DNA from: Pseudocercospora fijiensis CIRAD86
Taxonomy: Eukaryota; Ascomycota; Dothideomycetes; Mycosphaerellales; Mycosphaerellaceae
Direction of reading: 5' to 3'
Length of the DNA stretch: 64,000 bases
Assembly (NCBI RefSeq): GCF_000340215.1
Contig: NW_006921554.1
Coordinates: 248,001-312,000 of the forward strand
Below, piece by piece: positions 1 through 41,900 of the stretch; the first letter of the stretch is position 1, and each line of letters opens with the position of its first letter. Made by a program: the position numbers and the translations under genes. Under the pieces are notes generated by a model. It searched no databases. It saw only the letters and a list, made by a program, of their open reading frames with translations, and was not told where the DNA came from.

Positions 1-59
1 CTTTTAAAGTATCGTATCGTTAGGAATAGCTAGGTAGTAAGTATATAGCTACCTTTTTT

Positions 60-1440
60 TATTTCCTAGCTACCCTAGCTACCCTAGCTACCCTAGCTAC
101 TTGAACTTTTCCCTTTTATACGACGGTTCTCTCCTACTAACGGAATAGAGCTACTATAGCAATCGAGCTTGTTTTTAGTCTTAATCCTTCCTCCTTTAGC
201 GTAAGATACTCGATAAGTAAATGCTCGGGCTGAGTTTAACTACGAAATCTATATCTAACTAATACCTCCTTTAACTAATCCTACTTCTCGAACTCCCTCC
301 GCTTCTTAGTAAAGACCTTAAAGAGCGAACTAGCTTCGTTAGGCGACTACGGAGTAGTCGAGATAAAGCCGTATTACTAAAGTAGGTAATTACTAGGAAC
401 CTTATATAGAGGTCGAGAGAAATCTAACGGGAAACTATCCTACTAGTAGCTTAGATTCCGGATATAAGCCCTCTCTACCGGAGTAAAGATTTTATATAGT
501 AACGGTACTCTTCCCTCGGAAATCGCTTTCTATTCGACTATTAGTATCTACCGGCTACGAATGCCGGCTATAGCTACCGGCTATAAAATACTTACTTTTA
601 CGTCCTCTACCTCTAGTAATACCTTCGCCGCCCTTAGATATCTAGCCTCTATATTATTAATCGTAAGATATTTTTCCTTTCTACTTATAAAGGCGTTCCT
701 TTAATACTTATAAAGAAATCTCTACTCTATATTAAGGATCTAAAGACGACTAGCCTTAATTCTAATCTTCGTAAGCTTTTCGTAGTAGCTTTAACGATAA
801 CTATCTAGATTAATAGGACTTATGCCTTAGACCTTTACTAGCGCCTCGTCTCTTTTGCTATACTTAATCTACTCCTAGCCCTTATCGTCTATAGCGTTAG
901 GCCTTAGGACTACGCCTATAAATAGATCGACGTATAGTATCTCCTTACTTTTTTTAGTCCTATTATTCGTAGTAATAAGCTCTTACGTAGTATTCTAAAG
1001 TCTAGTATTACTACTCTCGGCTATTTAAATATCTCCGTTATTATCGATCGTATCGATAGAGGTAGTAAGAATAGGTCTAAATAGTATTAGTTACCGATTT
1101 CGAGAAAGGATACTAGCTACGCTACTAGCTATATATACCGGCTACGTATGCCGGCTATATTAACTTACGCTAGTAGAAATTGCTCCTCGAAAACTAGCCG
1201 TAATTCTTTCCTCCTCTAAGCCTTCTCCTAGCTTGTCTTCTACTTCTAACCTTCGCTCTTTTTAATAGGCGCTAGCTATTAATAGAATGCCTCGTTACGC
1301 GCCTTCCTTCTCTTATTCTTAGCTCTTTTATCCTCGTCTATATTATCCTTCCTCTCGCGATCTCGTATAGAATTTTTATTTATAGAGTACTCCTCTTTAG
1401 TCTTACGTATTTTTTTAGATACTAAGCTAAAACAAACTCG
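60..1440 (-). pseudogene. Unrecognised basic protein of the hAT element (E1 copy), RIP-inactivated
   Basis: Third copy of the accessory gene described at 10965-12330. Reading the minus strand and treating TAG/TAA as former CAG/CAA gives the same product: a Lys/Arg-rich N-terminal part, a middle segment broken by a 12-bp repeat unit (GCCGGCTATAGCTACCGGCTA-like, about 545-590 and 1128-1155), and a C-terminal part ending near 60-240. The nearly equal spacing in three copies shows that this is a real gene of the element and not a chance frame. I do not recognise a domain. Many stops and a lost start codon make it non-functional. Confidence 0.55.
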
Positions 1441-1640
1441 CGTTCTTTACTATCTTCTCTTTAGCGCGCGGCGCGCTTCTCTCTTACTATTTTAAAAAGG
1501 AGAGAGGGAAGGGGGAGGGGGGGGCGAAGCGTTAATAGTTATTGTAGGTATAGAAGAGGAAGAAGATAAAAGGTATAAGAATATCGCGAAGCCCTAATTA
1601 TTGCTACCTACGTAACGTTATCTAGGTAAGCTTTTATAAC

Positions 1641-1720
1641 TACGGTAACTACGCCCTAGTAACGGTAACTACGCCCTAGTAACGGTAACTACGCCCTAGT
1701 AACGGTAACTACGACCTAGT
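1641..1720. repeat. 20-bp tandem repeat, four units, in the hAT right arm
   Basis: Four head-to-tail copies of a unit close to AACGGTAACTACGCCCTAGT occupy 1641-1660, 1661-1680, 1681-1700 and 1701-1720, the last with one change. Copy E3 has only about two units (36758-36800) and E2 about one and a half (10721-10757). The unit number therefore varies between copies of one element family, as expected for a minisatellite in a terminal region. Subterminal repeats often bind the transposase in hAT elements, but that role is only an inference here. Confidence 0.85.
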
Positions 1721-1764
1721 AACGGCAATCGCTATTATTAAGGCAATCGCGGGCGGGGAAAATG

Positions 1765-1990
1765 TAATCTAGTTGCTATAATAGCCGGTAATAGTAGCCG
1801 GTAGTCGGGTAGGAGTATACTTATAATAAAACTAATATAGTCTCTCGCTACTACGACCTATTAACGGCAATGCTTATAGTTAGGGCATCCGCGAGCGACC
1901 TAAATATAACCTAGTTACTATTATAGCCGGTAATAGTAGCTAGTAATTAGATAAGAGTATATTTATAATAAAACCGATATAGTCTCTAGT
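1765..1990. repeat. Direct duplication of about 80 bp in the hAT right arm
   Basis: A block containing TAGCCGGTAATAGTAGC, then a stretch ending in AATATAGTCTCT, occurs at about 1765-1845 and again at about 1910-1990. The same pair is present in E3 (about 36835-36920 and 36985-37065), whereas E2 has a single block (about 10585-10680). The duplication separates the 20-bp minisatellite from the terminal inverted repeat. No coding sense was found. Confidence 0.7.
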
Positions 1991-2109
1991 TCTAACTAGG
2001 AATCTATATAGTTTAAAAAAACTAACCTAGAACTAGGGAGCTAGTTTGCCGCTAAGATACTAAACTATATACGTTTTATAGTTCGCAACCTAAACTACTT
2101 CGTAGTCTA

Positions 2110-25261: not shown

Positions 25262-27890
25262 ATAGTTTAATATTAAAATACCTAAAACTAGGGAATATAG
25301 ATTTATCGCCGACTAACTATCTCTATTCTAATTAATATCGGGAATTTTAAAGAGAGATAAGGGCTAAAGTAGATATAGCGTTCGAGAAAGAGATACGTCT
25401 TCTAGATACGCCGGCTATAGCTACCGGCTATAGCTACTAGCTATAGTTGCCGGCTATAGCTATAGGCTACTTAAATTAGCTACGCTAAAGGAAGCTTAAG
25501 GATTAGAGGCTACCGATTTCTCCCTTAAAGACTTTAAGTAACTAGTAAACGAAATGCTAGCTATAAATAGTCTTCGGGAAGACTTCTACGAAAGGGAGTC
25601 TATATAAAAGATATACCTATATCTTATAAACTACCTCCTCCTATTTCTCGGCGCGACTATCTAGCGCGCTATATTCGAGAAGAATAAAGAGGCTATATTA
25701 GACGACATTCGGGAGATCCTCCGTAATACTCGCCGAGTAGCTATTACTATCGATAGCTAGTTAAGCCGGAATATAGGACTCTCCTTCCTCTCGATTATAC
25801 TATACTTTATAAATTTAGATTAGAAATTCTAAGAACTCTTAATTAGATTCCTAGAAATCCTAAATTCCTTTATTAGTAAGAATATAGCGAAGCTTATCTA
25901 TACGGTAATAGATAAGATTAGCGTAACTAAGAAACTAATCTTAATTACTATAGATAACGCTAGTAATAATCGAATATTAATATAAGGCGTTATCTATACT
26001 ATTTAGTTATATTTATCTTTAAAATTGTTAATAGTATTAATAGGGTCGAGTATATAGACGAGATTATAAGGTCTATAGTCTAGCTTAGTCTTCTAAATGT
26101 TTAGCTTATAATAATTCCGGATACGTCCGATACGTAGGATAATAAAAAAGACACTTCGGATAGTACTAGTAGTAGCGCTATAGAATAGGAGCCGATAGTA
26201 GTATTTATATTTCCGAAGAAGTTTCCCTACCTCGCTTATTTAGTTTAAATCGCGATCCGAGCCCTTCCTAAGTCGCTTAAAATTATACTATTAAACGACG
26301 ACTAATAGAAGATCCTAGATAAGAATAAAGTAAAGTTAAAAGTCGAGAAACTCGTTAGGGGATAAAACTAGATAAGGCAGAGAGCCTCGCTTTCGTTTTA
26401 TATAAGATATAACTTTTGTCCGTAGCTAGTAGCTATAGCTAGTAACTATAGTTAGTAGCTATAGCCGGCAATCTAGGATAGTTCTAACTCTTTCTCCCTA
26501 GCTTCGTCGTTTAGCAATCTATACGAACTCGAGCTTATAGAGATATAATCGATTTAAGGCTATTTAAAAGACTCTTATTAAGCGCCCTAAAGTCGATACC
26601 TAGAATATCGTATAGAATAAATAATAGTAAAACCGGCCCCTCTAGCGTCTACTCTATTTTATCTAAGATATAAAGACCCGGTTTGATTCGACTTTCTATA
26701 TAATTACGAGGGGATATAACCTACGTACCGCTTTCGAGACCTATTAGAATTCCGAAGATATTAAGTAGCTCGTATTTACTACCGCCGAATAGCGCTAGGT
26801 AGAGTATCTCGTAGATATTAGTAAGTATTACGCGAAGGTTACTACTATAATTAGAAGAATCCGAGGACCGACGACTTATTTTATCTTTAGATACTATAAC
26901 TAGCTCTTTAACGAGCTCGACGAAACCGTAGCTAAGCTAGCTAAGAAGAGCGTCCCCTAGAAAGTAGCTATAACGAAAGCTATAGATACTTCTTATACTA
27001 AGTTATATAAATATTATAGTACTATCTTCGAGTCGTTTAGGGATTCTATAGCGTTCCGTACTTACTAAACCTAGTAGAAAAGTTAATATACTAGTAGAAG
27101 GAGAAATAGGAGGAAGACGAGAAATAGTCTAAGCGATACTAGTATATTCTAGAAAAGATACTCTATAGATATCGGAAAGAAACTAGTCTAAATATAGCTC
27201 GTATAAAGAGAAAGAAGGCTAAAAAGGCTCCGATGTCCTAGTTATTTCGTAGATAGATAGTTAAGATAGAAGAGGAAGTAAATACTAAAGTAAATAAAGA
27301 AGAGTTCGATCTCTATCGGCGCGTAAGTAAATATACTAAACTTTTAGACTCGGCAAGAGGGCTATTATCTCTGATCTTACTACTTTTCTAGACGAGTTCG
27401 GAGACGATATTCTCGCTATATAGTAATAGTTAGAGCCTAAGTTTCTAACGATAGCTACGATAGCTTAGAACGTCCTCGCTATTCCGAGCGTAGATATAGG
27501 CTATAAAAGATTTTTTAATATCGCCTATTACTAGGGCCGCTTTAATCGAATATACTCGCCTACTACCTTCGAATCTATTATAGTATTCCGATATAACCTC
27601 CTCTACTAGAGTCGCTAAGGCAAAATACTAAATATTATACTAAAGGACTTAATCGAGGAACTAGAAAAGCTTAAGATCGAGGAAACCTAATAGCGCGAAA
27701 AGAATACAAAATTTAGTTTAAGCGAAATACTTATTAGCGATAATAAAGAGGAGGAGAGCGGAGGTAGAAGGCGATATCGAGTCGAGAAGCGGAAGTATAT
27801 ATAGGCTAATAGTAGCTTTAAAGAGAAGAAGCGTTTATATAGAAGGTAATATAGCCGATATATATAGCCGGTATACTTTCTTAATATAGC
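25262..27890 (+). pseudogene. hAT transposase, catalytic and dimerisation part (E2 copy)
   Basis: Continuation of 12480-13018 after Gypsy I. Reading RIP stops as Gln gives a clear hAT transposase. AITIDSQLSRN near 25745 sits where the first catalytic Asp is expected. ILITIDNASNN near 25940 is the hAT DNASNN motif with the second Asp. TIATIAQNVLAIPSVDIG followed by RFFNIA and a FRYNLLYQSRQG tail (about 27450-27620) is the C-terminal hAT dimerisation domain (consensus ...AIPsSs..sER.FS...). The gene runs in the same direction as the basic protein upstream and the two H3-like genes downstream. It is inactive through many stops and the Gypsy I insertion. Confidence 0.88.
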
Positions 27891-27989
27891 TTAAAGTCCT
27901 AAATAGACTAGTTACTATAGTAACCTACCCCGCTTACCTACTAACTATTTCTAATCTCTATTCGCTCTTTCTCTCTATCTTTCCTTTCC

Positions 27990-28581
27990 CTATATTCTAA
28001 AAGATAAATATACCTTACGGATTAGGTTCTTTAGGCCTTACTAAGTCGGCTACCTCCTCTACTTATAGCGACTATCTTAACTAAGAATCTAACGAGGACC
28101 TACTAAGACGCTTTAATAGAAGACTATTTAATTTAGAAGGTAAGAACTATTAATATCTCGTTACGATTATAGGCTTATTAATTTTCTAGATTTTACCGAT
28201 ATATCCTCGTCGCCTAGGTATATATAAAGATATCTTTAGAACTTAGAAAAGAGTAAGAGTAAAACAAACTAGGTATATAAAGGCCGTAGCGAGAACGAGA
28301 TATTAGAAGAGGAGGATTATTCGTAGTATATATAAAGGAAGGGGATTCCTTAGAAAATGGTATCGAAAAATAAGAAGGCTTTAAGTAGATAGGAGAAGGC
28401 TAAAGTAGCTAAAAAAGGGTCGGACGAAGGCTATTACAAAGAAGAGTTATTCTTCTGTAAAAAAAAATATAAAAGTTAGGTCCCGATACTAAAGAAGTAG
28501 CGCTTTAAACTAGATACTATTACCCTTCGCGAGATCCGGCTATTCTAAAAGTAAAGATAGACCGAGTTCCTAATCCTTAAG
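27990..28581 (+). pseudogene. H3-A: histone H3-fold protein, N-terminal extension, tail and start of fold (E2 copy)
   Basis: The plus-strand frame corresponds to E3 31680-31200. It holds an N-terminal extension, an acidic patch (ENEILEEEDYS, about 28290-28320), a basic Lys-rich tail (28350-28480) and the opening of a histone fold: RFKLDTITLREIRLFQ at about 28500-28548, the counterpart of H3 RYRPGTVALREIRRYQ. The frame is cut at 28582 by hAT copy E3 and resumes at 37194. It lies about 100 bp after the transposase. Because of RIP the reading frame is not functional. Confidence 0.75.
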
Positions 28582-29150
28582 TAGACGCCGTAGTAGTTCG
28601 GGTTAGGTTAGGTTAGTTTACTAAGCCGAAATTCCGGTTTAGTTTAGTTTAGTTTACTAAGAAACCGGTATATAGACCGGTTTCTTACTAGCTATATACC
28701 GGCTACGGAACAAAGCCTACCTTAAATACGTCTAAATAGCCTAAAAAATAGATACAATCGTATAGTATATATAATATAGGGCCCCCGTCGCGTTCTAGAC
28801 TCGTTCCGAGGTCGTCGTATATCGTCGTATATTATCGTAGTTTAGTCGGGATTTCTCGGAAACTAGCCCCGAACTAGCGGAGTAGTAAACTAAACCGAAC
28901 CGGACCGCTAAGCTACCGCTAAGAAACTAAACTATATATGTTTTATAGTTCGTAAACTAAACTACTTCGGGGTCTAGTTTCTAAGAAGTATAAGAATATA
29001 TACGTAACTTAAAGTAAGCCCTTTATAAGACTAGTACTAATAGAATTTCCGAAGACTTTAATTCCGTACGCTTAAGAAAGTATATTATACTATATATATA
29101 TATGCCTAGAGAGTATATAGAGCGCGCTATATAGCGCTATATTTTACGTA
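28582..29150. repeat. hAT E3 left arm, containing an extra right-end-like segment
   Basis: The TIR is followed by GGTTAGGTTAGGTTAGTTTA and several GTTTAGTTTA units. At 28916-28976 a sequence nearly identical to the last 60 bp of the element's right end appears facing outward. The body then resumes at 28977 in line with 40345 of E2 (reverse strand). The extra piece (at most about 28685-28976) looks like a small non-autonomous hAT derivative nested in the left arm. GTTTCTTA / GTTTCTAA on its two sides may be its target duplication. No gene. Confidence 0.6.
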
Positions 29151-29179
29151 TAGAAACGCTTATAGAGGATACTAAGAAC

Positions 29180-29880
29180 AACTACGCTATCTTTTACTAT
29201 ATCGAATAAAGATATTCTAGCCCGTAAGAATCTAATCGAGGGCGATAAAATCCTTCTATATAATCGTAATACGCTTAGCGTAAATAGCTATAAGTTAGAT
29301 AGCTAAAATAGCATTAGTATAGTTCGAAAAGAGATAGAAGAGAAATATATATTTAAAGATACGAATTAGATAGGGTTCTATAGCCTCCTAAAGGGCCTCG
29401 ATTACGGATCTCTAAAAGCGAAAATCGACTCGATAGCTAATAGCAATTTCGCGAATAAGTCGCTAGAAGGGAGCTTTAGGAATAAGGAGCTTATCTCCCC
29501 TCTAATATCTCCGAATCTTACGAAGGGCTACGGCTAAAGAAGGATTAGTAAAAAGGAGTAAAGATGCCGGCTACGCTACCGGCTACGCTACCGGCTATAC
29601 TACTAGCTATAGCTACCGGCTATAGAGAAAACTTACTTCCTAGGCGTTATCGACGCTTACTACGATTATTACTACTAGTAGTAGAAGCACTCGTCGTCGT
29701 CTTATATAGAGCTTTACCCGCCGTCGTTTTACGTAGATTCTTACCTATAGTCTACTTTTACCTAGCGCGACCGGTAGCGGTAGTAGCTATCTTACGTAAA
29801 TATACTATACTCTTTCTACTAGGTCTAGTTATATTACGACCCTAAGTAGTAGTAGGTCCCTTCTTACGAGGCTTCGGACT
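29180..29880 (-). pseudogene. H3-B: histone H3-like protein with H3-type tail (E3 copy)
   Basis: A minus-strand frame. The tail (about 29880-29650) contains ARQKQT and, further on, RKTTAGKAL, resembling the H3 N-terminus around Lys4 (ARTKQT) and Lys9 (ARKSTGGKAP). A linker follows with three units of a 12-bp repeat (29564-29605). The fold begins near 29530 with ALRKIRRYQ, then KLLIPKAPFQRLIREIA, DFRFQRS and ALQEAIEPYL. After a probable intron it continues LIAIYAKRITI and KDFIALDQIL. The match to H3 alpha-N, alpha-1, loop 1 and alpha-2 is gap-free, and loop 1 is of ordinary H3 length, not the longer CENP-A type. RIP stops and changes inactivate it. A second copy is at 38560-39230. Confidence 0.82.
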
Positions 29881-30952
29881 TTAGTCGAGTAGATTCGCTA
29901 TTATAAAAGTCGTCGAATTAGTAGAAAAGTACGTTACGAAGATATAGAAAGGCGCGCGCGGAGCGGAGATATAGTAGAGGTAGTAGATATAGAGCGTAGA
30001 AGTATCGCGGTATCGCTAGGCAACTAAGTAAGCTTCGCGTAAGCCTATAGTAGAGTAACGTTATAGTAAGTAAAGAAGGTAGGTATAGCTAAAAGAGGTA
30101 GGAACGGCAAACTTTAAAATATAGCTAGTACTTATAGCTAGTATAGAAATACGGCAAAAGCCTCCTTTTAATAAATAGTCGGCGTAATAAAAGTAGCCTA
30201 CTATAATATAGGTATTTTCTAGTAGTTCGATTAAATACCGAATCGGCTTTCTCGCTTAGAAATAGAAATACTTATCCGCCGGATAGTAAAACGGCGACTC
30301 GCTTTATAAGGAGAATCTAGGAAATTCTACCTAGTAATACTATAATACTATAAATAATAGTACTAAAAAAATCTAGTTATACGATTATCTAAGTCGAGCT
30401 CTATTTAGTAATATAACGGCTAACTAGCTATAGCAAAGTATTTACTTAAGCTTATAGTTTACCTTACCGTTACTATATCTTTTAATATATAGTAATCCTT
30501 ATCCGGGTTTAATATAGCTAACTAGCCGCGGACGCCCGATAGTACTAACTTTTATAGCCTATTTTCCTAGTCCTAGCCGCTTCCTTAGTCCTCGTAAGGA
30601 AGCCGTAACCCTCTATATCTTATTTGCTATCGCTCCGCGACAACCTAGTAAATATAAGGTACTAGGTTACTACTTCGTATCCTAGATATAGATAGGGCGC
30701 GGAGTTGAAATTAGAGGTATAGCTAGTATATATAGCCGGCAAAAGGATACGGAAAGAAGCCTCCTCTTACTAAATAGCCGGCCTATCTATAGAAGCCTAT
30801 CGTAATATAGATATTCTCTAGTAATGCGATTAATAGAGAATTAGGGAGTATTAATAGAGAAGGAGAAGGAGAAGATATCGAAAGGCTTACGCCCTAAGAG
30901 CGGCCGTTCGCCGAGTAAGCGATTAGTCTAGTTACTAGGTACAAATCCTAAT
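29881..30952. other. Spacer between H3-B and H3-A in E3
   Basis: About 1.07 kb with no convincing frame. It is collinear with 37416-38560 of E2 (reverse), apart from a CA-rich block found only in E2. It contains 12-bp GCCGGC-type repeat units near 30120-30150 and 30725-30745, and short repeats of its own (GTAGGTATAGCTAAAAGAGG region, 30080). It presumably holds promoter and terminator sequences for the two histone-like genes. Confidence 0.5.
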
Positions 30953-31680
30953 TATTCCGCTATAAATCGACGCCGAATCTTAGCTAGAAGGTATATATCT
31001 TTTTATTAAAGAGTAACCCGCTTCGTATAGATAGTAAGAAGGTTAGAAAGCTCTAACTCGGTTATAAGAAATACCTCCGTAGCTTCCTGAAGAGTACTAA
31101 TCGCCTTAGCCGTAAATAGTATACTAGACGTAAAAGCTAATATAATTTCTTAGACGAGTCGCTAGAAAGGAGCCTTAGGAATTAAAAGCTTAGTCCCCTT
31201 TTTATCTTAGAATTTCCGGATCTCGCGAAGGGTAATAGTATCCGGTTTAACGCGCCGCCCTTTACCCTTTTTCCTTATAGAAGAATAACTCTTTTTCGCG
31301 ATAGTCTTCGTCTACCTACTTTTTTTTCCCACTTTAGCCTTCGCCTGTCTAGACGAAGCTGCCTTATTTTTTAATACTATTTTACGAGAAACTACCTTCC
31401 TTTATATATACTACGAATAGTCCTCCTCTTCTAATATCTCGTTCTCGCTATAGTCTTTCCGTACTTAGCGTCCTTTATCCTTACCCTTTTCTAAGTTCTT
31501 AAGGTATCTTTATACGCGTTCGGGCGACTAGGATATATCGGTAGTATCTAGAAGATCTATAAGCCTTTAATCGTAAAAAGATATTAAATGCCTCTTATCT
31601 TCTAAACTAATCGCTATAGGGAGAGGGAGCGGCCGACTTAGTAAGGCCCGAAGAGCCGAATCCGTAAGGTATATTTATAT
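30953..31680 (-). pseudogene. H3-A: protein with C-terminal histone H3 fold (E3 copy)
   Basis: A minus-strand frame with stops read as Gln. From the N-terminus it shows an extension with RYLKNLEKGKDKGR, an acidic patch (ENEILEEEDYS), a Lys/Arg/Ser-rich tail containing SRQTKTIAKKS (compare H3 ARTKQTARKS), and a fold at about 31255-30960. The fold contains KPDTITLREIRKFQ, KLLIPKAPFQRLVQEI, ISTLQEATEVFL, NLLTIYTKRVTL and KDIYLLAKIRR. It spans about 98 residues, like the H3 fold, with gap-free alignment from alpha-1 to the end and two extra residues between alpha-N and alpha-1. Loop 1 has H3 length, so it is not CENP-A-like. The extended N-terminus is unusual for a histone. The start is uncertain. 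Confidence 0.85.
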
Positions 31681-31959
31681 TTTAGAATATAAAGAAAGGG
31701 AAAAAGGAAAGGAAGAGCGAATAGAGATTTAGAAATAGTAGTAGGCGAGCGGGATAGGTTACTATCGGAACTACTCTATTTAGGAATTTAAAATATATTA
31801 GGAACGTATATTAGCCATATACGCCGGCTATATACGCTAACTGTACAGGTCGGTTATATATAGAAACTCTAGTAAAGATAGCTATTTGCCGGCTATACCT
31901 ACTAGCTATATTATCTTCTACGTAAACGCTTCGCCTCCTTTAAGTCGCTCTTAGCCTAT

Positions 31960-34900
31960 ATACGCTTTTACTTCTCGACTTATAGTCGCCTTCCACCTCC
32001 GCCCTCCTCCTCTTTATTATCGCTAATAAGAGTCTCGCTTAGACTAAATTTCGTATTCTCTTCGCGCTTTTAGGTTTCTTCGATCTTAAGCTTTTCTAAT
32101 TAGTCGATAAGCTCCTTTAATAAGATATATAGTATCTTGCCTTAGCGACTCTAGTAGAGGAGGTAGTATCGGAATACTATAATAGATTCGAAGGTAGTAG
32201 GCGAGTATATTCGATTAAACCGGCCCTAGTAACGAGCGATACTAAAAGATCTCTTAAAGACTATACCTATACTCGGAATAGCGAGGACGTCCTAAGCGAT
32301 CGAAGCTATCGTTAGAAACTAAGGCTCTAACCGCTACTATATAACGAGAATATAATAAATATTATCTTCGAATTCGTCTTAAAGACTAGTAAGATTTAGA
32401 GATTATTAGCTCTCTTTCCGAGCCTATAAGTTTAGTACTTACCTACGTACTAATAGAGATCGAACTCTTCTTTATCAAGTACAGAACTAACTTACTCTTC
32501 TATTTCTACTTCCTATTTACGAAATAGGTAGGATATCGGAGCCTTCTTAGCCTTCCTTTTCCTAATATAACCTATATTTAGAGTAGTTTCTTTCCGACGC
32601 TTACTAAATATCTTTTTTAGAACCTCTTAATATCGCTTAGGCTATACCTTATTATCCTTCTATTCCTCCTTCTACTAGTATATATCCTTTTAAACTAGCT
32701 TTAGTAAATATATAACGCTATAGAGCTCCCCGAACAACTCGAAGGTAGTACTATAATATTTGTCTAGCTTAGTATAGGAAGCCTCTATAGCTTTCGTTAT
32801 AGTTACTTTCTAAGGGACCCTCTTTTTAGCTAGCTTAGCCGCGAGTTATTTAAGCTTATTAAAGAGCTAGTTATAGTATATAAAGATAAGGTAGATCGTC
32901 GGTCCTCGGGTTCTTCTAATCGTAGTAGTAACCTTTACGTAATATTTACTAATATCTACGAGATACTCTACTTAGCGCTATTCGGCGGATATAAGCGCGA
33001 GCTACTTAATACCCTTAGTATTCTAATAGAGCTCGAGAGCGGTACGTAAAGTATATCCCTTCGTAAGTATATAGAAAGTCGAATCGAATTAGGTCTTAAT
33101 ATCTTAGATAAAATAGAGTAGGCGCTAAGGAGGCCGCTTTTGCTATCGCTTATTCTATATAATATTCTAGATATCGACTTTAGGACGCTCGATAAGGATC
33201 TTTTAAATAGCCTCGAATCGGTTATATCTCTATAAGCTCGAGTTCGTATAGATTACTAGACGACGAAGCTAGAAAAAGAGAGTTAATAGTATCTTAGATT
33301 GCCGGCTATAGATACTAGCTATAGATAAAAGTTATACCTTATATAAAACGAGAGCGATACTCTCTACCCTATCCTATTTTATTACGGTAACGAGTTTCTC
33401 GACTCTCGACTTTGCTTTACCCTTATCTAGGACCTTCTATTAGTCGTCGTTCGATAGTATAATTTTAAGCGTCTTAAAGAGGGCTCGGATCGCGATTTAA
33501 ACTATATAGGCGAGGTAGGGAAACTTCCGTAGGGATATAACCGCTAATATCGCCTCCTATTCTATAGGTCCGTTAAGACTTCTTAACTAAGGGTCCTTAT
33601 TATCTTTTAAGTCGTACGTATCCGAAATTATAGTAAGCTTAATATTAGGAAGATTAAGCTAGATTATAGACCTTACAATCTCGCCTATATAGTCGACCCT
33701 ATTAGTACTATTAGTTATTTTAAAGATAAATACAACTAGATAGTATATATAACGCCTTATATAATATTCGATTATTACTCGCGTTTTCCGTAGTAATTAA
33801 GATTAGTTTCGTAGTTACGCTAACCCTATCTATTACCGTATAGATAAGCGTTACTATATCCTAACTAGTATAGGAACCTAGAATTTCTAGGAATCCGATT
33901 AGCATTTCCTAGAGTTTCTAATCCGAATTAATAAAGTATAGTATAATAGAAAGGAAGGAGGCCCTTATAGTCTAGCTTAACTAGCTATCGATAGTAATAG
34001 CTACTCGGCGAGTATTACGGAGAATCTTCTAAATATCGTCTAACGTAGCCTCTTTATTTTTCTCGAATATAGTACGCTAGGTAGTCGCGCCTAGAAATAT
34101 AGAGGGGTACTTTATAAGATATAGGTATATCTTCTATATAGAATCCCTTTCGAAGAAGTCTTCTAAAAGACCGTTTATAGCTAAAATTTCGTTTACTAGT
34201 TACTTAAAATCTTCGGGGAAGAAATCGGAAGCCTTTAATACTTAAGCTTCCTTCTACGTAGCCTATAAAAATTAGTAGTAGTTATAGGGTTAAGTTTAGG
34301 AGCCTCTAGCTATAGCCGGCAGCTATAGCCGGTAGCTACGGCTAGTATATTTAGAAGACGTACCTCTTTCTCGAACGCCGTATCTATCTTAACCTTTACC
34401 TCTCCTTAAGATTCCCGATACCGTTTAAAACGGAGATAGTTAGTAGGCGATAAATTCCTATCCCTTAGTTTCGGGTATTTTAAGATAAAACTATAGAATT
34501 TATAGATAATTACTAGTTAACCTTTTAGATACGAACTCGTATTATAGTATAATGCCTCTCTTATAAAAATTTTCTAGAATATATCCGTTCGATCCTTACT
34601 ATCCTATCGTATCGAGTACTTCCGTAGTTTATACTCCCTTAAACGTAAGTAAAAAGGGAACTATATCTTATAGATCTATTAATTAAACTACTTAGTATAC
34701 TTAGGTTTCTAAAGATACGCCTAGCTAGCCTTTTCGAAGATATCCGGGTTAATACTTAATATTCGTATCTCTCTAAATAACCTTCTTCTTAGACTCTATA
34801 AAGGTAAGGACCGGACGATAGTATCCTATAACGAAATCCTACTACTAGGATACGAAGAGGATAAATCTAGCCTTAATTGTCGTCTAGTACTTAATAGGCT

Positions 34901-34990
34901 CGAAGGTAAGTATATAGCCTCGTCTCGACGTCGTTACGATCTAGTTCGTATACTAGACTATCTCGCCTATTGTTTCGTAGTTACCCTTCC
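31960..34990 (-). pseudogene. hAT transposase (E3 copy)
   Basis: Uninterrupted version of the E2 transposase on the minus strand. The C-terminal dimerisation domain is clear: TIASIAQDVLAIPSIG followed by RSFSIARYQGRF (about 32330-32220) and FRYYLLYQSRQGK. The first residue of the usual ER pair is Lys, another G-to-A change. The catalytic region (reverse strand, about 33950-33750) is collinear with the DNASNN motif of E2. It lies between the basic protein gene (right) and H3-A (left), all on one strand. Stops of the TAG/TAA type occur throughout. Confidence 0.85.
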
Positions 34991-35189
34991 TAGTTTAGCG
35001 CCTAGTATATATATAATATCGTTCGGTATATTTTAAAGTTTTATATAGAGAGGTTAAGAGTAGTAGATATATACTAGTAATTATAGGGAAATACCCTTTC
35101 TTTTATAGTATCGTATCGTTAGGAATAGCTAGATAGTGAGTATATAGCTACCTTTCTTTATTTCCTAGTTACCCTAGCTACCCTAACTA

Positions 35190-36550
35190 CCTAATTTCTT
35201 TCCCGGCTACCCTAGCTACCCGAATTTTTCCCTTCTGTACGACGGTTCTCTCCTACTAATAGAATAGAGCTACTGTAGCAATCGAGCTTGTTTTTAGTTT
35301 TAATCCTTCCTTCTTCGGCGTAAGATACTCGATAAGTGAATACTTAGGCCGAGTCTAACTACGAAACCTGTACCTAACTAATACCTCCTTTAACTAATCC
35401 TACTTCTCGAACTCCCTCCGCTTCTTAGTAAAGACCTTAAAGAGCGAACGAGGTTCGTTAGGTATCTATAGAGTAGTCGAGATAAAGCCGTATTACTAAG
35501 GTAGGTAACTACTAAGAACCTTATATAGAGGTTAAAAGAAATCTAACGGGAAACTATCCTACTAGTAGCTTAGACTCCGGATATAAGCCCTCTCTACCGG
35601 AGTAAAGACCCTATACAGTAACAGCACATTCCTTCGGAAATCGCTTTCTATTCGACTATTAGTATCTACTAGCTACGAACGCCGGCTATAGCTACTAGCT
35701 ATAAAATACTTACTTTTACATCCTCTATCTCTAGTAATACCTTCGCCGCCCTTAGATATCTAGCCTCTATTTTATTAATCGTAAGAAATTTTTCTTTTAT
35801 ACTCGTAAAGGCGTTCCTCTAATATTTATAAAGAAATCTCTACTCTATATCGAGGATATAAAGATAACTAGCCTTAATTCTAATCTTCGTAAGCTTTTCG
35901 TAGTAGCTTTAGCGATAATTATCTAGATTAATAGGACTTATGCCCTAGACCTTTACTAGCGCCTCGTCTCTTTCGCTATACTTAATCTACTTCTAGCCCT
36001 TATCGTCTATAGTATTAGGCTCTAAGACTACGCCTATAAATAGATCGACGTATAGTATCTTCTTATTTTTTTAGTTACTTTATTCGTAGTAATAAGCTCT
36101 TACGTAGCATTCTAAAGTCTAGTATTACTACTCTCGGCTATCGAAATATCTCTATTATTATTAATCCTATTAATAGAGGTAGTAGGAATAGGTCTAAATA
36201 GTATTAGTTACCGATTTCGAGAAAGGATACTAGCTACGCTACTAGCTACGTATACCGGCTATAGCTACTAGCTATATTAACTTACGCTAGTAGGAATTGC
36301 TCCTCGAAAACTAGCCGTAATTCTTTCCTCCTCTAAGCCTTCTCCTAGCTTGTCTTCTATCTTTAACCTTTACTCTTTTTAATAGGCGCTAGCTATCGAT
36401 AGAATGTCTTATTACGCGCCTTTATTCTCTTATTCTTCGCTCTTTTATCCTCGTCTATATTATTCTTTCTTTCGTAATCTTATATAGAATTCTTCTTAGT
36501 ATAGTACTCCTTCTTAGTCTTACGCTTTTTTTTAGATACTAAGGTAAAAT
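35190..36550 (-). pseudogene. Unrecognised basic protein of the hAT element (E3 copy)
   Basis: Counterpart of 10965-12330, including the basic N-terminal part (near 36550-36300), the 12-bp repeat tract (36240-36275) and a second tract (35670-35700). It is separated from the transposase by about 200 bp containing a TATA-like stretch. Preservation of its length and layout in three copies argues that the element encoded it. Family unknown. Confidence 0.55.
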
Positions 36551-36599
36551 AACCTCGCGTTCTTTACTATCTTCTATTTAGCGCGCGGCGCGCTTCTAT

Positions 36600-37185
36600 C
36601 TTACTATTTTAAGGAGAAAAGAGAAAGAGGGAAAGGGGGGCGTAGCGCTAATAGCTACTATAGGTATAGAAGAAGACAAAGATAAAAAACATAAGAATAT
36701 CGCAAAGCCCTAATCGTTGCCGCATATATAACCTTATATAGGCAAGCTTTTATAACTGCGGTAACTACGCCCTAGTAACGGCAACTACGACCTAGTAACG
36801 GCAATCGCTATTATTAAGGCAATCGTAGGCGGGGTAAATACAACCTAGTTACTATAATAGCCGGTAATAGTAGCTAGTAGTCGGGTAGGAGTATGCTTAT
36901 AATAAAACTAATATAGTCTCTAGCTACTACGACCTATTAATAGTAATATATATAGTTAGGGTATCCGCGAGCGACCTAAATATAACTTAGTTACTATTAT
37001 AGCCGGCAATAGTAGCCGGTAGTCGGATAAGAGTATATTTATAATAAAACCGATATAGTCTCTAGTTCTAACTAGGAATCTATATAGTTTAGAAAAACCA
37101 ACCCGGAACTAGGGAGCTAGTTTGCCGCTAAGAAACTAAACTATATACGTTTTATAGTTCGTAACCTAAACTACTTCGGCGTCTA
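36600..37185. repeat. hAT E3 right arm
   Basis: Non-coding terminal region: a purine-rich run, about two 20-bp minisatellite units (36758-36800), the duplicated 80-bp block twice, and the conserved last 120 bp ending ...CTTCGGCGTCTA. The TIR matches the left end at about 20 of the first 26 positions or better. Confidence 0.75.
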
Positions 37186-37193
37186 TCCTTAAG

Positions 37194-37415
37194 ACTCCCC
37201 TTTAGCGACTCGTCCGAGAAACTATATTAGGTTTTTAGTATAGTATACGATCTACGGCTAAGGCGACTAGTACTCTTTAGGAAGCTACGGGGGCATTTTT
37301 CGTAACCGAGTCTAAGCTTTCTAATCTCCTCACTATCTATACGAAGCGGGCTACCCTTTAATATAATAATATATAGCTTCTAGATAAGATTCGGCGTCGG
37401 TTTATAGTAGATTAA
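37194..37415 (+). pseudogene. H3-A: remainder of the histone fold (E2 copy, after the E3 insertion)
   Basis: Continues the frame cut at 28581. It reads RLVRETILGF, then EATGAFFV, SNLLTIYTKRATL and LLDKIRRRFIV, ending with a possible natural TAA at 37413-37415. These are the alpha-1, alpha-2, loop 2 and alpha-3 parts of an H3 fold, collinear with 31180-30953 of E3 (reverse). The two flanking copies of TCCTTAAG show that the break was made by E3. Confidence 0.78.
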
Positions 37416-38560
37416 TTAGGATCTATATCTATTTTCGTATCCTTTTACCGGCTATAGGTACCGGCTATACTTCTAATTTTATATCTGCTATACCTAAATC
37501 TAAGGTACGAAGTAGAAACCTAGCGCTTTATATTTACTCGGTTATCGTAGCGCGTTTATAAGTAAGGTATAAAGGGTTACGGCTTCCTTACGAGGACTAC
37601 TTTACCTTAGCTAGTTAGATATTTCGAACCTAGATAAGGAAGCGGCTTAGACTAGGAAACTAGGCTTTAAAAGCCGGTACTGTCGGCCTTTCTAGCAGCA
37701 GGCGCCCGATCGCATATAACACACTCCTATAAGCGAAGTCCGAGACAACACAGGCTCCTAGTCGCCTAGAGCAACGCACTACACAAACAACTAGGCGCAC
37801 TACTCCCACCCACCGACGCCCGATATCCTAGGATACTCTTCTCGCACTTTTTCACATCCTTTTTTAGTACCTTACCCGTAAGCGCTCCGCGATAACGGAG
37901 TAAATATAAGGTACTAGGTTTCTACTCGGTACCTTAGCCTTAAGATAGGGCGGAGTCGAATTTATAGGTATAGCCGGCACTCGTAGCTAGTATATAGAGA
38001 CGGAAGTAAGCCTCTCCCTACTAAATAGCTAGCTTATTTAGTATAGCCTACTATAGTATAGATATTTATTATATTTCCTAGTAAAAGCCGGTTCGGAATC
38101 TAATCGAATTCTTAAAGAATATCTATATTATAGTAGGATACTATTATTACGCCGACTGTTTATTAAAAGGAGGCTTTCGCTATATTAGTATACCGGCTAT
38201 AGGTACCGGCTATATTTTAAAGTTTACTATATCTATCTTTTCTACGCTGTACCTACCTTTTTAGCCGTATCTACCTTTTTAGCTATATCTACCTTTTTTC
38301 GCCGTACCTACCTTCTTTACTTACTATAACGTTATTATAATATAGGCTTACGCGACGCTTATACTATCGGCTAGCGATACCGCGATACTACCTCTCTCGA
38401 TATATATAATCTTTATATTAATATCTATACTTCTATACTCTATATCGACTATCTCTACTAACCTTTACTCTACGCGTACTTTCTTATACCTTCGTATCGT
38501 ACTATATTATTAATTAGACGACTTTTATTATAGCAACTCTACTCGACTAACTTATAACGT
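37416..38560. other. Spacer between H3-A and H3-B in E2, with a CA-rich block
   Basis: No convincing frame. It is mostly collinear with 29881-30952 of E3. Positions about 37685-37862 differ: this block has abundant CA dinucleotides (AACACACTCC, CACTACACAAACAACTAGGC) and so has escaped RIP. 12-bp repeat units occur at 37448-37470 and 38195-38215, and three units of a TACCTTTTTAGCCGTATC-like repeat at about 38240-38310. Confidence 0.55.
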
Positions 38561-39230
38561 CTTATAAGAAGAAGGGTCCTACTACTACTTAGGGTTATAA
38601 TAAGACTAGACCCGATAGTAAGAGTATAGTATATATATATAAGAAGGCTTATACCGCTACCGCTATCGCTACCGGTAGTACTAGAAAGAGCGTAGTAGAT
38701 AAGACTCTACGTAAAACGACGAGTAGCACTTCTACTACTAGTAGTAATAATCGTAGTAAACGTTAATAGCGTCTAGGAAGTAAGTTTTATCTATAGCCGG
38801 TAGTATAGCCGGTAGCGTAGCCGATAGCGTTGCCGGTATTTTTACTCCTTTTTACTAATCCTTCTTTAGCTAAAGCCCTTCGTAAGATTCGGAGATATTA
38901 GAAGGATTAGAAGCTCGTTATTCCTAGAGCTCCTTTTAATCGACTTATCCGCGAAATTGCCTTTAATAGTAGAGTAGACTATCATATTTAAGCCTCTGTA
39001 CTCGAGGCCCTTTAGGAGGCTATAGAAGCCTACCTAGTCCGTATCTTCGAATATATATTCCTCTTCCCCTTTTTTTAAACTATACTAATACTATTTTAGC
39101 CTTTAACCCTATAGCTATCTACGCGAAGCGCGTTACGATTATAGATAAGGATTTTAAAGCCCTCGATATAATTCTTAAAGGCTAGAATATCTATATTATA
39201 GATAGTAGTAGGTAGGATAGATCTTCTTAG
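38560..39230 (+). pseudogene. H3-B: histone H3-like protein (E2 copy)
   Basis: A plus-strand frame. The tail (about 38590-38770) has GSTRKSVVDKTLRK, a weaker match to the H3 tail than in E3, then a Ser/Thr/Asn-rich part. The linker carries 12-bp repeat units (38793-38842). The fold starts near 38870 with AKALRKIRRYQ, KLVIPRAPFNRLIREIA, LEALQEAIEAYLVRIF. After a probable intron it resumes with IAIYAKRVTI and KDFKALDIIL. It is in the same order and strand as the E2 transposase and H3-A. Agreement of two independently inserted copies supports a real gene. Confidence 0.8.
39049..39099 (+). other. Probable intron in H3-B
   Basis: Between AYLVRIF and IAIYAKR the coding match lapses for about 50 bp. 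The segment is pyrimidine-rich, has a branch-like TACTAAT (39083-39089) and ends TTTTAG at 39099. E3 has the same structure (about 29390-29335, minus strand). The 5' boundary reads ATATAT, which could be GTATAT after a G-to-A change. The placement corresponds to the FED/TNL part of the H3 fold. Confidence 0.5.
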
Positions 39231-39239
39231 TATCCTCTA

Positions 39240-40101
39240 TAAGCGTTTCTACACATAATATCTACCGCTATTATACGGCGCTATATAGCGCGCTCTAAAT
39301 ACTCTTTAAGTATATTTATATATAATATAATATACTTTATTAGCCGTACGGAATATAAGTCTTCGAAATATCTATAATCTATTAGTACTAAGAAGAAAAA
39401 TGCTAACTACGCTACCGGCTACGCTCTAGGCTACGCTACCGGATCTTATAAAGAACTAAAAGAAGATAGAAATTCTAATTTGTTTATTATAGTTTAGATT
39501 TTTATAAAAAGGAAAAAAAGAAAAAGGGGGAAGGTTAAAGAACCTAAAACTAATATTTATAGGAATTATCCCTAGTTTCTAGATCTTATTATATATCTGT
39601 TTTCGTAAATCTACCTAATAGTCCTTGTAAATATTCTTATACTCTACCTACTAGAAATCTAACTAGATGCCTAGACCTATAGTAGCCTCTATATCTTTTA
39701 CTATATTCTATATACTAAATGCCTCCTTAATAGTATTCTCTACCTCCCCATATAATACGAAGTTACTTCCTATCCTATCCCCTATATCCGCTAAATAACT
39801 AGGAGTTCTAAGGATCGAACTAGAATTCGGCTATAGTAAAGCGACTAACTAGTAGAACGTAGTATAAAGCTATTTTACAGCTCTTTTACACACTTTACCG
39901 ACATCAAAGGAGGAACCATCCTAGCACTTAATACTAGAGAGTAGTTTAGTAGGAAAGTATCGGAACTTCTTATAAAGAGCTTCGAGAGAAATCGATAAGT
40001 TCTACCTAGATCTAGATAAAAACATTCTACTAAGTAGTTAGGGAATTAAATAAGGGGCGAAAGGATAAAGTTTATACCTAAGGAGTATAGTTTCTAAACT
40101 A

Positions 40102-40135
<34 letters not shown>

Positions 40136-40457
40136 TTAATTAGTTAGTACCCTTAGCTAATGATCTATAGATTTAGGGTAATATAAATACCTTCTTATAG
40201 CTACTACGGAATTAAAGTCTTCGAAAATTCCATTAGTACTAAGATATAAAAATGCCGGCTACGCTACCGGCTATACTACCGGATCTTATAAAGGGCTTAC
40301 TTTAAGTTATGTATATATTCTTATACTTCTAAAAAACTAATAAATTCTATAGTTCGAACCTACTACTACTATAGTTTCTTAGTAAACTAAACTAAACTAA
40401 ACTAGAATTTCGGCTTAGTAAACTAAACTAAACTCATCTAAACTACTACGGGATCTA
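39240..40457. repeat. hAT E2 left arm, with an insertion of about 0.8 kb
   Basis: The flanks repeat each other: CTACCGGCTACGCT...CCGGATCTTATAAAG occurs at about 39410-39455 and 40256-40299. E3 lacks the roughly 840 bp between them. The insertion contains a (TA)n run (about 40102-40132) and a tRNA-like stretch on the minus strand (39805-39868). The terminal part (40300-40457) has the GTTTAGTTTA repeats and the left TIR. No protein frame was seen. Confidence 0.6.
39805..39868 (-). other. Possible Pol III promoter boxes (tRNA-derived SINE candidate)
   Basis: The minus strand reads TTCTACTAGTTAGTCGCTTT (A-box-like) and, about 25 bases on, TAGTTCGATCCTTAGAAC (B-box GTTCGATCC). The spacing is shorter than in a true tRNA, and no full cloverleaf can be drawn with confidence. 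A tRNA-related SINE within the 39480-40300 insertion is the best reading, but weak. Confidence 0.3.
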
Positions 40458-41900
40458 CCTACTACCATATCGAAGCTACCTTATATAGACTAAGAATATA
40501 CTTATACTATTCTACTAGTTTAAATCTATATCTATTAATACTCTTTTAAGTATCTCTAAATCTTTTACTACTATTTTATTTTTTAATAACTACTTCTTAT
40601 ATAGTCTAGAATAGGCTACTAAAGAAGGAGGGAATACTATTAAGGGACTCTAACTTAAAAGTAACTATTAAGCTCCTCGGTAGCGCTATATATCTTATTA
40701 GTAAAGCTTAGCGTACTAAAAAAACTTATTACTTACTTACTCCCTTTTCGAATCGCTTAGATATTATTATATAGAGAAGTCTTACTACTATATTATATCT
40801 ATATAACTATTTAATTGCTTTCCCTATATTTATATTAATATTTATTATACCTTTACTTACTAAAAGTAAAGCTATTAACTTTAGATTAGTAGAATACTTA
40901 CTTATCCTAATTTTTTCTATTATATATTAACCTAGAAAGCTTTAATTACTTTTATAGTAGCTACTATACCTATATCTATATTTGCTATTATACTAACTAC
41001 TATCCTTTTTTTAATCTAAAATATATTTAGAATTAATACCGATTTAAGGTACTTAGAGTCTATAGCTAATTTTAAGTTTATTATATCGAAGATTTATAAA
41101 AAGGCTTCGAAGAATCCGCTATTTACTATTAAAAAAGATTATAGTTTTTATAAACTAAAAGGAGATAAATATATCTAGAAAAGTATAGAGTATCTAATAA
41201 TATCGGCCTAAGCTAAATCTTTGTTTTACCTTTATCTTATTCTTAATCTTATTCTTAATCTTATTCTTAATCTTATTCTTAATCTTATTCTTAATCTTAT
41301 TCTTATTCTTATTCTTATTCTTATTCTTATTCTTATTCTTATTCTTATTCTTATTCTTATTCTTATTCTTATTCTTATTTTTAGTTTATTTTTATGATTT
41401 TTTTCCTTAGTATTCTAATAGAGAGGCCCTTTATAGAGTTATACTAATCTCTAAGATACTCTATAATTAGCTAGGAATATCTTATACTAGTAGAACCTTC
41501 TAGAATATTATAGTTACTATCTAGAATATATCGATAGGTTAGCCGCTATACTATAGAATAACGTTAGATTTAAGTTATCTTAGTAGTAGAGGCCTTATAC
41601 GAAGGAGGTCGCCTAGTTAGCTATATAGTATAGTACTTTAGGAACTCTTAGAGAGGCTGTATATAGTATATTAATATATTATATTTTAATATACTAGCTC
41701 CGGAACTATACTAAACGACGCGTATACGAATAACAGTAAGTAAGATATATAAGAGAGCTATAGGATAGATCTAGATAGTAGAAAGGGGCTAGAGGATATA
41801 AAAGAGATAAAATAAATATATTTAAGATAAGAGCGTTCGCGCTAGCGCGCTAAATACGATAGTAGGGAAAAAAGATTACTTTAAGATATAATAACTAGAT
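40458..41900. other. AT-rich region without a recognised gene
   Basis: No frame with a known motif on either strand. It is rich in TTTATTATA-type sequence and short direct repeats. It contains the CTTATT microsatellite at 41226-41388. It may be a fully decayed transposon between hAT E2 and the Copia remnant. Confidence 0.5.
41226..41388. repeat. (CTTAAT/CTTATT)n microsatellite
   Basis: About 27 units of a 6-bp repeat: first alternating ATTCTTAATCTT, then pure CTTATT. The change from a 12-bp to a 6-bp period suggests expansion by slippage. Confidence 0.9.

What the first reader, a model, noticed from the sequence alone, without database searches (positions are those of the whole stretch)
28582..37185. 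A hAT DNA transposon that carries two histone H3-like genes
E3 has hAT ends, an 8-bp target duplication and a hAT transposase. Downstream on the same strand it has two separate frames that end in a histone H3 fold (30960-31255 and about 29220-29530). The matches cover alpha-N (LREIRKFQ / LRKIRRYQ), alpha-1 (KAPFQRLVQEI / KAPFQRLIREI), alpha-2 (TLQEATE / ALQEAIE), loop 2 (IYTKRVT / IYAKRIT) and alpha-3 (KDIYLLAKIRR). I know of no described cut-and-paste transposon encoding its own H3 proteins. Possible roles, all speculative, are packaging its own DNA, evading heterochromatin, or steering insertion through nucleosomes.
Basis: partly seen in the sequence, partly recalled or inferred. Interest (0 to 1): 0.97.

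Follow-up and report, generated by a model that had tools for sequence, protein, structure and literature searches.

The report
Dead hAT transposon with histone genes
A mutated, dead fungal jumping gene (a hAT transposon) carries two genes for proteins like histone H3, the DNA-packaging protein; such elements were reported in 2013 and 2019, so the kind is known, but one of the two genes was likely a working, spliced gene that selection kept.

Summary
Window 28582-37185 is a complete 8.6-kb element with inverted ends and a perfect 8-bp target duplication. It has a hAT-like transposase and two histone H3-fold genes on the minus strand (PF00125, stops masked: E = 1.4e-19 and 2.3e-13). [quoted passage not shown]

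The claim that no such transposon is described does not hold. H3-carrying hAT elements were published in Pyrenophora tritici-repentis (2013) and, with one or two H3 copies per element, in Pseudocercospora fijiensis (2019), very likely this genome. The window copy belongs to an 8.6-kb subfamily about 81% identical to an element of the abundant kind there.

Details I did not find in what I read of those papers: H3-2 keeps an intron one codon from the host H3's second intron. Its published "16-amino-acid insertion" looks like a 48-nt intron. A transversion-only test, which RIP cannot bias, suggests purifying selection on H3-2 between two subfamilies (p 0.003-0.011, near-replicate pairs), but not against a third, and not on H3-1. 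Neither gene is CENP-A-like. E3 sits inside the H3-1 gene of an older H3-hAT element. Known kind; the open question is whether selection kept the histones.

The parts
28582..37185 (.). E3, complete 8604-bp hAT-type element of the 8.6-kb subfamily (B); RIP-inactivated
   Evidence: ends, 8-bp duplication and related copies
28574..28581 (.). left target-site duplication TCCTTAAG
37186..37193 (.). right target-site duplication TCCTTAAG
28582..28600 (+). left terminal inverted repeat
   Evidence: 16 of the first 17 bases match the right end inverted
37167..37185 (-). right terminal inverted repeat
32000..34330 (-). hAT transposase-like region (limits uncertain; similarity to L050 runs on to about 36060, where the held part of L050 ends)
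   Evidence: tblastn from open hAT frames of the same genome to about 33777-34106, E 3.9e-6 and 1.3e-6; Dimer_Tnp_hAT-like piece about 32235-32330, E 0.085, below cut-off
30940..31299 (-). H3-1: intronless H3-fold gene core with a 2-residue insertion before alpha-1
   Evidence: PF00125 E 1.4e-19 with stops masked; copies in three subfamilies
29238..29531 (-). H3-2: H3 fold, in two exon parts around a 48-nt insert
   Evidence: PF00125 E 2.3e-13 with stops masked; alignment
29303..29350 (-). 48-nt insert in H3-2, likely an in-frame intron (the published 16-aa insertion)
   Evidence: TACTAAT and TAG at its 3' end; leaving it out of the count gives H3 length
29534..29636 (-). predicted intron of H3-2 between tail and fold (GTAAGT...TACTAAT...TTTAG, 103 nt)
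   Evidence: same signals in 8 of 8 H3-2 copies held, 79-116 nt
29637..29790 (-). H3-2 tail with RKTTAGKAP-like units (outer limit approximate)
37186..40458 (.). one side of the older H3-hAT element into which E3 inserted; H3-2 at 38872-39212(+), part of H3-1 up to 37427(+)
   Evidence: alignment to L050, tblastn
25265..28581 (.). other side of the same older element (its transposase side)
   Evidence: alignment to L050 4975-8284

Best explanation
E3 is a RIP-killed hAT DNA transposon that carries two histone H3-like genes, is a subfamily member of the H3-carrying hAT elements already published for what is very likely this same genome (Pseudocercospora fijiensis), and when alive likely made at least one of them (H3-2) as a spliced H3 variant. 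Shown: ends, 8-bp duplication, hAT-like transposase, two H3 folds, and both H3 genes in 8 of 8 elements whose held DNA spans both regions. Inferred: the transposase moved the element by cut and paste. Predicted: H3-2 was transcribed with two introns, and its protein paired with H4 in nucleosomes. Its tail would carry several copies of a motif like residues 8-16 of H3. Most likely role, inferred only: the variant or its repeated tail would weaken H3-lysine-9-based silencing of the element, as an altered substrate or a decoy, so that selection on the transposon kept the gene.
For: Element and H3 folds. Published family and host match: one or two H3 copies per element, 16-aa insertion in the second, original H3 on scaffold 6; H3 without stops on C6; 74 Mb, largest scaffold 11.8 Mb; here 73.9 Mb, and C1 of 11.88 Mb. 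H3-2 as a spliced gene: intron signals in 8 of 8 copies held, one codon from host intron 2; 48-nt insert with 0 of 48 purine/pyrimidine differences in each of six L050-B pairs, against 25-28 of 243 in the exons (Fisher 0.007-0.020 per pair); P0132, an open environmental H3-like protein, has an equally long block at the same site. Selection: transversion-only N/S ratio 0.25-0.30 for L050 against six B copies, p 0.0031-0.0107 (exact exon limits; with limits off by one codon gave 0.23-0.28, p 0.0014-0.0053). Tail repeats vary in number among copies.
Against: The six B copies share ancestry and were tested against one A copy, so this is close to a single comparison. The older element against the six B copies gave ratios 0.63-0.77, p 0.26-0.42, and against L050 0.42, p 0.11. 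Of eight wrong-frame controls the lowest p was 0.052, the others 0.096-0.69. H3-1 showed no significant selection (ratios 0.62-0.73, p 0.33-0.39; fixed purine/pyrimidine differences 5, 3, 6 by codon position). A 5' splice site of the 48-nt insert is not readable in any copy I hold. No expression, binding or silencing data exist here. The role in silencing is conjecture.
Confidence: 0.6

Rival explanations
1. Passive cargo: a host H3 transcript was captured once (transduplication) and copied along with the transposon without ever doing anything for it, as Dhillon et al. 2019 propose.
For: H3-1 is intronless and shows no significant selection; the third subfamily gives no significant selection on H3-2 either; the copies seen are RIP-killed; the published phylogeny reads it this way.
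Against: H3-2 keeps intron signals in 8 of 8 copies held, so at least that copy was not a plain transcript. L050-B divergence is depleted in amino-acid-changing transversions. H3-1 and H3-2 do not group together, and H3-1 groups with an open environmental protein, P0001 (support 94).
Confidence: 0.3
2. The element carries a CENP-A-like centromeric H3 and uses it to act on centromeres or AT-rich chromatin.
For: H3-1 has a 2-residue insertion before alpha-1, and its best protein relative P0001 also has a loop-1 insertion.
Against: Neither element H3 has a loop-1 insertion, and neither has the RW of host CENP-A. H3-2 is closer to host H3 (51-69%) than to host CENP-A (48-63%); H3-1 is equally far from both (48-55% and 48-56%). 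The identification of the host CENP-A rests on hallmarks that I recall.
Confidence: 0.04
3. The H3 sequences are unrelated insertions or flanking debris, not part of the transposon.
For: The window is a nest of repeats inserted into one another; one copy, L004, breaks off before H3-1 and shows no H3.
Against: Both H3 genes lie in the same place between ends with target duplications in separate insertions (E3, L032, L033) and in 8 of 8 elements whose held DNA spans both regions.
Confidence: 0.02

Closest known systems
H3-carrying hAT of Pseudocercospora fijiensis and five other Mycosphaerellaceae (Dhillon et al. 2019, PMC6710886)
   Same: Very likely the same genome; hAT ends, 8-bp duplication, one or two H3-like sequences per element, 16-aa insertion in the second, all RIPped.
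   Different: Their full-length set is 9.5-9.9 kb with a 20-bp TIR; E3 is 8.6 kb and about 81% identical over the transposase to L050, a copy of an abundant H3-carrying element that I take to be theirs. They describe the captured sequence as a transcript without introns; H3-2 shows intron signals.
H3L-carrying hAT of Pyrenophora tritici-repentis (Manning et al. 2013, PMC3538342)
   Same: A hAT element with an H3-like gene beside its transposase, amplified in the genome; H3L has ESTs.
   Different: 5.6-kb and 2.3-kb forms, one H3L, copies mostly intact; the 2019 paper reports no sequence similarity between the two hAT groups.
Canonical fungal histone H3 (host gene on C6, L051)
   Same: Same fold; element H3s are 48-55% (H3-1) and 51-69% (H3-2) identical over the fold; nearby intron position in H3-2.
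   Different: Diverged tails, IYTKR/IYAKR in place of IHAKR, the 48-nt insert that the host gene lacks, RIP stops.
P0001 and P0132, open environmental H3-like proteins
   Same: P0001 shares the 2-residue insertion and C-terminal pattern of H3-1; P0132 shares the 18-residue block at the intron site of H3-2.
   Different: Open frames on short contigs; no genomic context available, so no link to a transposon is known.

Membership tests
hAT superfamily | 8-bp target-site duplication | tested here: met
   TCCTTAAG twice for E3; perfect also in L032 and L033, 6 of 8 in L031
hAT superfamily | short terminal inverted repeats | tested here: met
hAT superfamily | hAT transposase with C-terminal dimerisation domain | tested here: inconclusive
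   Dimer_Tnp_hAT below cut-off (0.085 and 0.014; an unrelated family also scored 0.019); tblastn from two of three open hAT frames of the same genome, E down to 1.8e-9; protein search with 178 masked residues: none of 513 candidates passed
hAT superfamily | catalytic D-D-E residues | not tested
   RIP damage and unknown intron limits
H3-carrying hAT of P. fijiensis (2019) | two H3-like copies, second with a 16-aa insertion | tested here: met
   48 nt at 29303-29350
H3-carrying hAT of P. fijiensis (2019) | full length 9.5-9.9 kb | tested here: not met
   8604 bp: a different subfamily; L050 stands for the abundant form, though its own length was not measured
H3-carrying hAT of P. fijiensis (2019) | DUF659 domain | tested here: not met
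H3-carrying hAT of P. fijiensis (2019) | host genome | tested here: met
   73.9 Mb, C1 of 11.88 Mb, H3 without stops on C6 against 74 Mb, 11.8 Mb, scaffold 6; species not named by any tool
Histone H3 fold | PF00125 above curated cut-off | tested here: met
   71.0 and 50.9 bits against 26.4, stops masked
CENP-A (centromeric H3) | loop-1 insertion and RW at the start of alpha-2 (hallmarks recalled) | tested here: not met
Retrocopy of host H3 | no introns | tested here: not met
   H3-2 keeps intron signals in 8 of 8 copies held; H3-1, by contrast, is intronless

The most novel reading that the evidence does not exclude
This hAT lineage did not just drag a dead histone copy along: it owned two separate H3 variant genes of different descent, at least one a spliced gene with a repeated K9-K18-like tail kept by natural selection, and used them against the host's chromatin silencing. 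It would be a cut-and-paste transposon with its own histones as tools.
Probability: 0.3. Interest if true: 0.85.

Novelty: already known. Interest (0 to 1): 0.42.

Why it matters
Manning et al. asked in 2013 whether captured histone genes are under selection and why (passage). Because RIP makes only transitions, counting transversions alone gives a test that RIP cannot bias, even on dead copies. The first result here (H3-2 suggestive in one of three subfamily comparisons, H3-1 not) shows that the question can be put. If H3-2 proves selected across species, H3-bearing hAT elements would be a natural experiment in a mobile element carrying its own histone variants. The intron evidence also questions the published account that the captured sequence was a transcript.

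Tried and rejected
Selection on H3-1: no significant result (the wider scan was also uninformative). L037 was dropped for a 9-residue deletion, 3 A copies (L036, L041, L050) of the 6 used and 7 of 8 B copies (L043 left out) were used. For H3-2, one search had the insert limits off by 3 nt and printed 48 also for pairs with a gapped copy; one search misaligned the second exon piece of the older element by two codons; one search corrected that but kept one mixed codon. One search recounts with exact limits and is the one I rely on; it weakened the p values (from 0.0014-0.0053 to 0.0031-0.0107), not the direction. Pfam on whole masked transposase frames: nothing. Protein search with the transposase: none of 513 candidates. 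P0132 against viral contigs found one locus, L056, whose neighbours look viral (giant-virus-like, my judgement) and which carries an unrelated fused histone gene; not pursued. NCBIfam: nothing. CENP-A reading: hallmarks missing. Literature: searches (15 of 28 papers listed; 0 found; 15 of 56 listed; 4 of 4 listed; 0 found); in these listings I saw no later paper on the function of H3-bearing hAT elements. Supplements were not readable.

In one search, 16 of the 120 listed proteins were read; 9 of 16 (P0132, P0134, P0135, P0139, P0140, P0143, P0144, P0145, P0148) have extra residues at the FE site. This is biased, because the query itself carried the insert.
Full report
WHAT IS THERE. The window is G000:C23:248001-312000 of a 73.9-Mb assembly in 30 contigs. 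CpA and TpG are at 0.06-0.08 of expectation over 28001-36000, the mark of strong RIP. The element E3 (28582-37185, 8604 bp) has inverted ends and a perfect 8-bp duplication, TCCTTAAG. Copies L032 and L033, at other sites, have equally perfect 8-bp duplications; L031 matches at 6 of 8.

THE TWO H3 GENES. With X at every stop, 30935-31299(-) and 29180-29561(-) match PF00125 at 1.4e-19 and 2.3e-13, well over the curated cut-off. Copies of H3-1 occur in three subfamilies in this genome: B (E3, L031-L035, L043, L054), A (L036-L041, L050) and C (L052, L053). Both H3 genes were found in 8 of 8 elements whose held DNA spans both regions (E3, L031-L035, L050 and the older element in the window). Other copies were held only in part; one of them, L004, breaks off before H3-1 and shows no H3 in the 1.5 kb beyond. 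The genome holds at least 150 PF00125 matches, the number scored from 772 candidates; among those 150 only two show no stops, the host H3 on C6 and a second gene on C5. The C5 gene has the RW and loop-1 features that I recall for CENP-A.

THE TRANSPOSASE. It is too damaged for Pfam cut-offs, but two of three open hAT frames of the same genome match it by tblastn (E 3.9e-6 and 1.3e-6 in E3, down to 1.8e-9 in L050). A weak dimerisation-domain match lies in the corresponding place of E3 and L050 (0.085 and 0.014), though an unrelated family scored 0.019 in another L050 frame. With the 8-bp duplication, hAT is the best reading.

IT IS A PUBLISHED KIND. Dhillon et al. 2019 (PMC6710886; parts 1-5 of 7 of the text read; not the supplements) report 784 H3-like copies in 471 hAT elements of P. 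fijiensis, one or two per element, the second with a 16-aa insertion, 8-bp duplications, all RIPped, with the original H3 on scaffold 6. The present assembly has the size, largest scaffold and H3 position of P. fijiensis (PMC4981457 passages); no tool names the species. Manning et al. 2013 (PMC3538342; passages) described an H3L-bearing hAT in P. tritici-repentis. E3 differs from the abundant form in length (8.6 kb against the published 9.5-9.9 kb) and in sequence (81% over the transposase region, 73% over the H3-1 region, against L050). I take L050 to be a copy of the published form; 40 of 40 scored matches to its H3-2 region were 92-100% identical (438 candidates in the first look).

WHAT I ADD. 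First, H3-2 is not a plain transcript copy. All 8 copies held have GTAAGT...TACTAAT...TTTAG (79-116 nt) between tail and fold, one codon from the host gene's second intron. The published 16-aa insertion is 48 nt with a TACTAAT and a TAG at its 3' end, and without it the fold has H3 length. An open environmental protein, P0132, has an equally long block there, and 9 of 16 relatives read have extra residues at the same place (a biased sample). The 5' splice site of this insert is not readable in the copies, so this intron is predicted, not shown. Second, the insert has 0 of 48 purine/pyrimidine differences in each of six L050-B pairs, while the exons have 25-28 of 243 (Fisher 0.007-0.020 per pair). 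Third, RIP makes transitions only, so transversions can be used on dead copies. L050 against six B copies gives N/S ratios of 0.25-0.30 (p 0.0031-0.0107), but these six are near-replicates of one comparison. The older element against L050 gives 0.42 (p 0.11) and against the six B copies 0.63-0.77 (p 0.26-0.42). H3-1 gives 0.62-0.73, not significant. Eight wrong-frame controls gave p 0.052 to 0.69. The evidence for selection on H3-2 is therefore suggestive, and for H3-1 absent.

DESCENT. Over the fold, H3-1 is 48-55% and H3-2 51-69% identical to host H3. In a tree of 100 columns H3-1 groups with P0001, an open 164-aa environmental protein sharing a 2-residue insertion (support 94), and H3-2 forms its own group (support 100). 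Many other nodes are weak, and the alignment is short. This favours two H3 genes of different descent over one recent capture from this host, without proving it. Neither is CENP-A-like by the hallmarks tested.

THE H3-2 TAIL. It carries repeated units such as RKTTAGKAP, close to RKSTGGKAP of H3, and the number of units differs among copies. A decoy or altered-substrate role against H3-lysine-9 silencing is my inference; nothing here tests it.

NESTING. E3 sits in the H3-1 gene of an older H3-hAT element whose two sides are 37186-40458 and 25265-28581; the uninterrupted site can be read in L050. tblastn over the whole window shows four H3 copies, two in E3 and two in the older element.

VERDICT. 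What remains open, and is testable, is whether the histone genes were kept by selection and for what.

Noticed in passing
window 25265-28581 and 37186-40458: An older H3-hAT element, diverged from L050 (about 81% identity on one side, 74% on the other), is interrupted by E3 within its H3-1 gene.
   Followed up: yes
window 1-2109 (G000:C23:244158-250109): Another copy of the E3 subfamily overlaps the left edge of the window and breaks off before its H3 genes; a further left-end motif TAGACGCCG lies at 3165.
   Followed up: partly
L034 618-1001; E3 28582-28976: A 384-bp non-autonomous derivative with both ends and a perfect 8-bp duplication (GATCGAGG) sits inside L034; the left 395 bp of E3 resemble it, while L031-L033 lack most of that stretch at their left end.
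   Followed up: partly
P0001 (164 aa, environmental): An open H3-like protein with both the H3-1 insertion and a CENP-A-like loop-1 insertion; its contig of 1189 bases gives no context.
   Followed up: partly
L056 1262-2479: A viral contig (neighbouring genes look giant-virus-like, my judgement) encodes a 405-aa protein with an H3-like part after another histone-like part; unrelated to the hAT element.
   Followed up: no
G000:C23: The window's contig (334 kb) is not among the 12 core scaffolds (1-10, 12, 19) named in PMC4981457, if the contig numbers equal scaffold numbers; it may be a dispensable scaffold.
   Followed up: no
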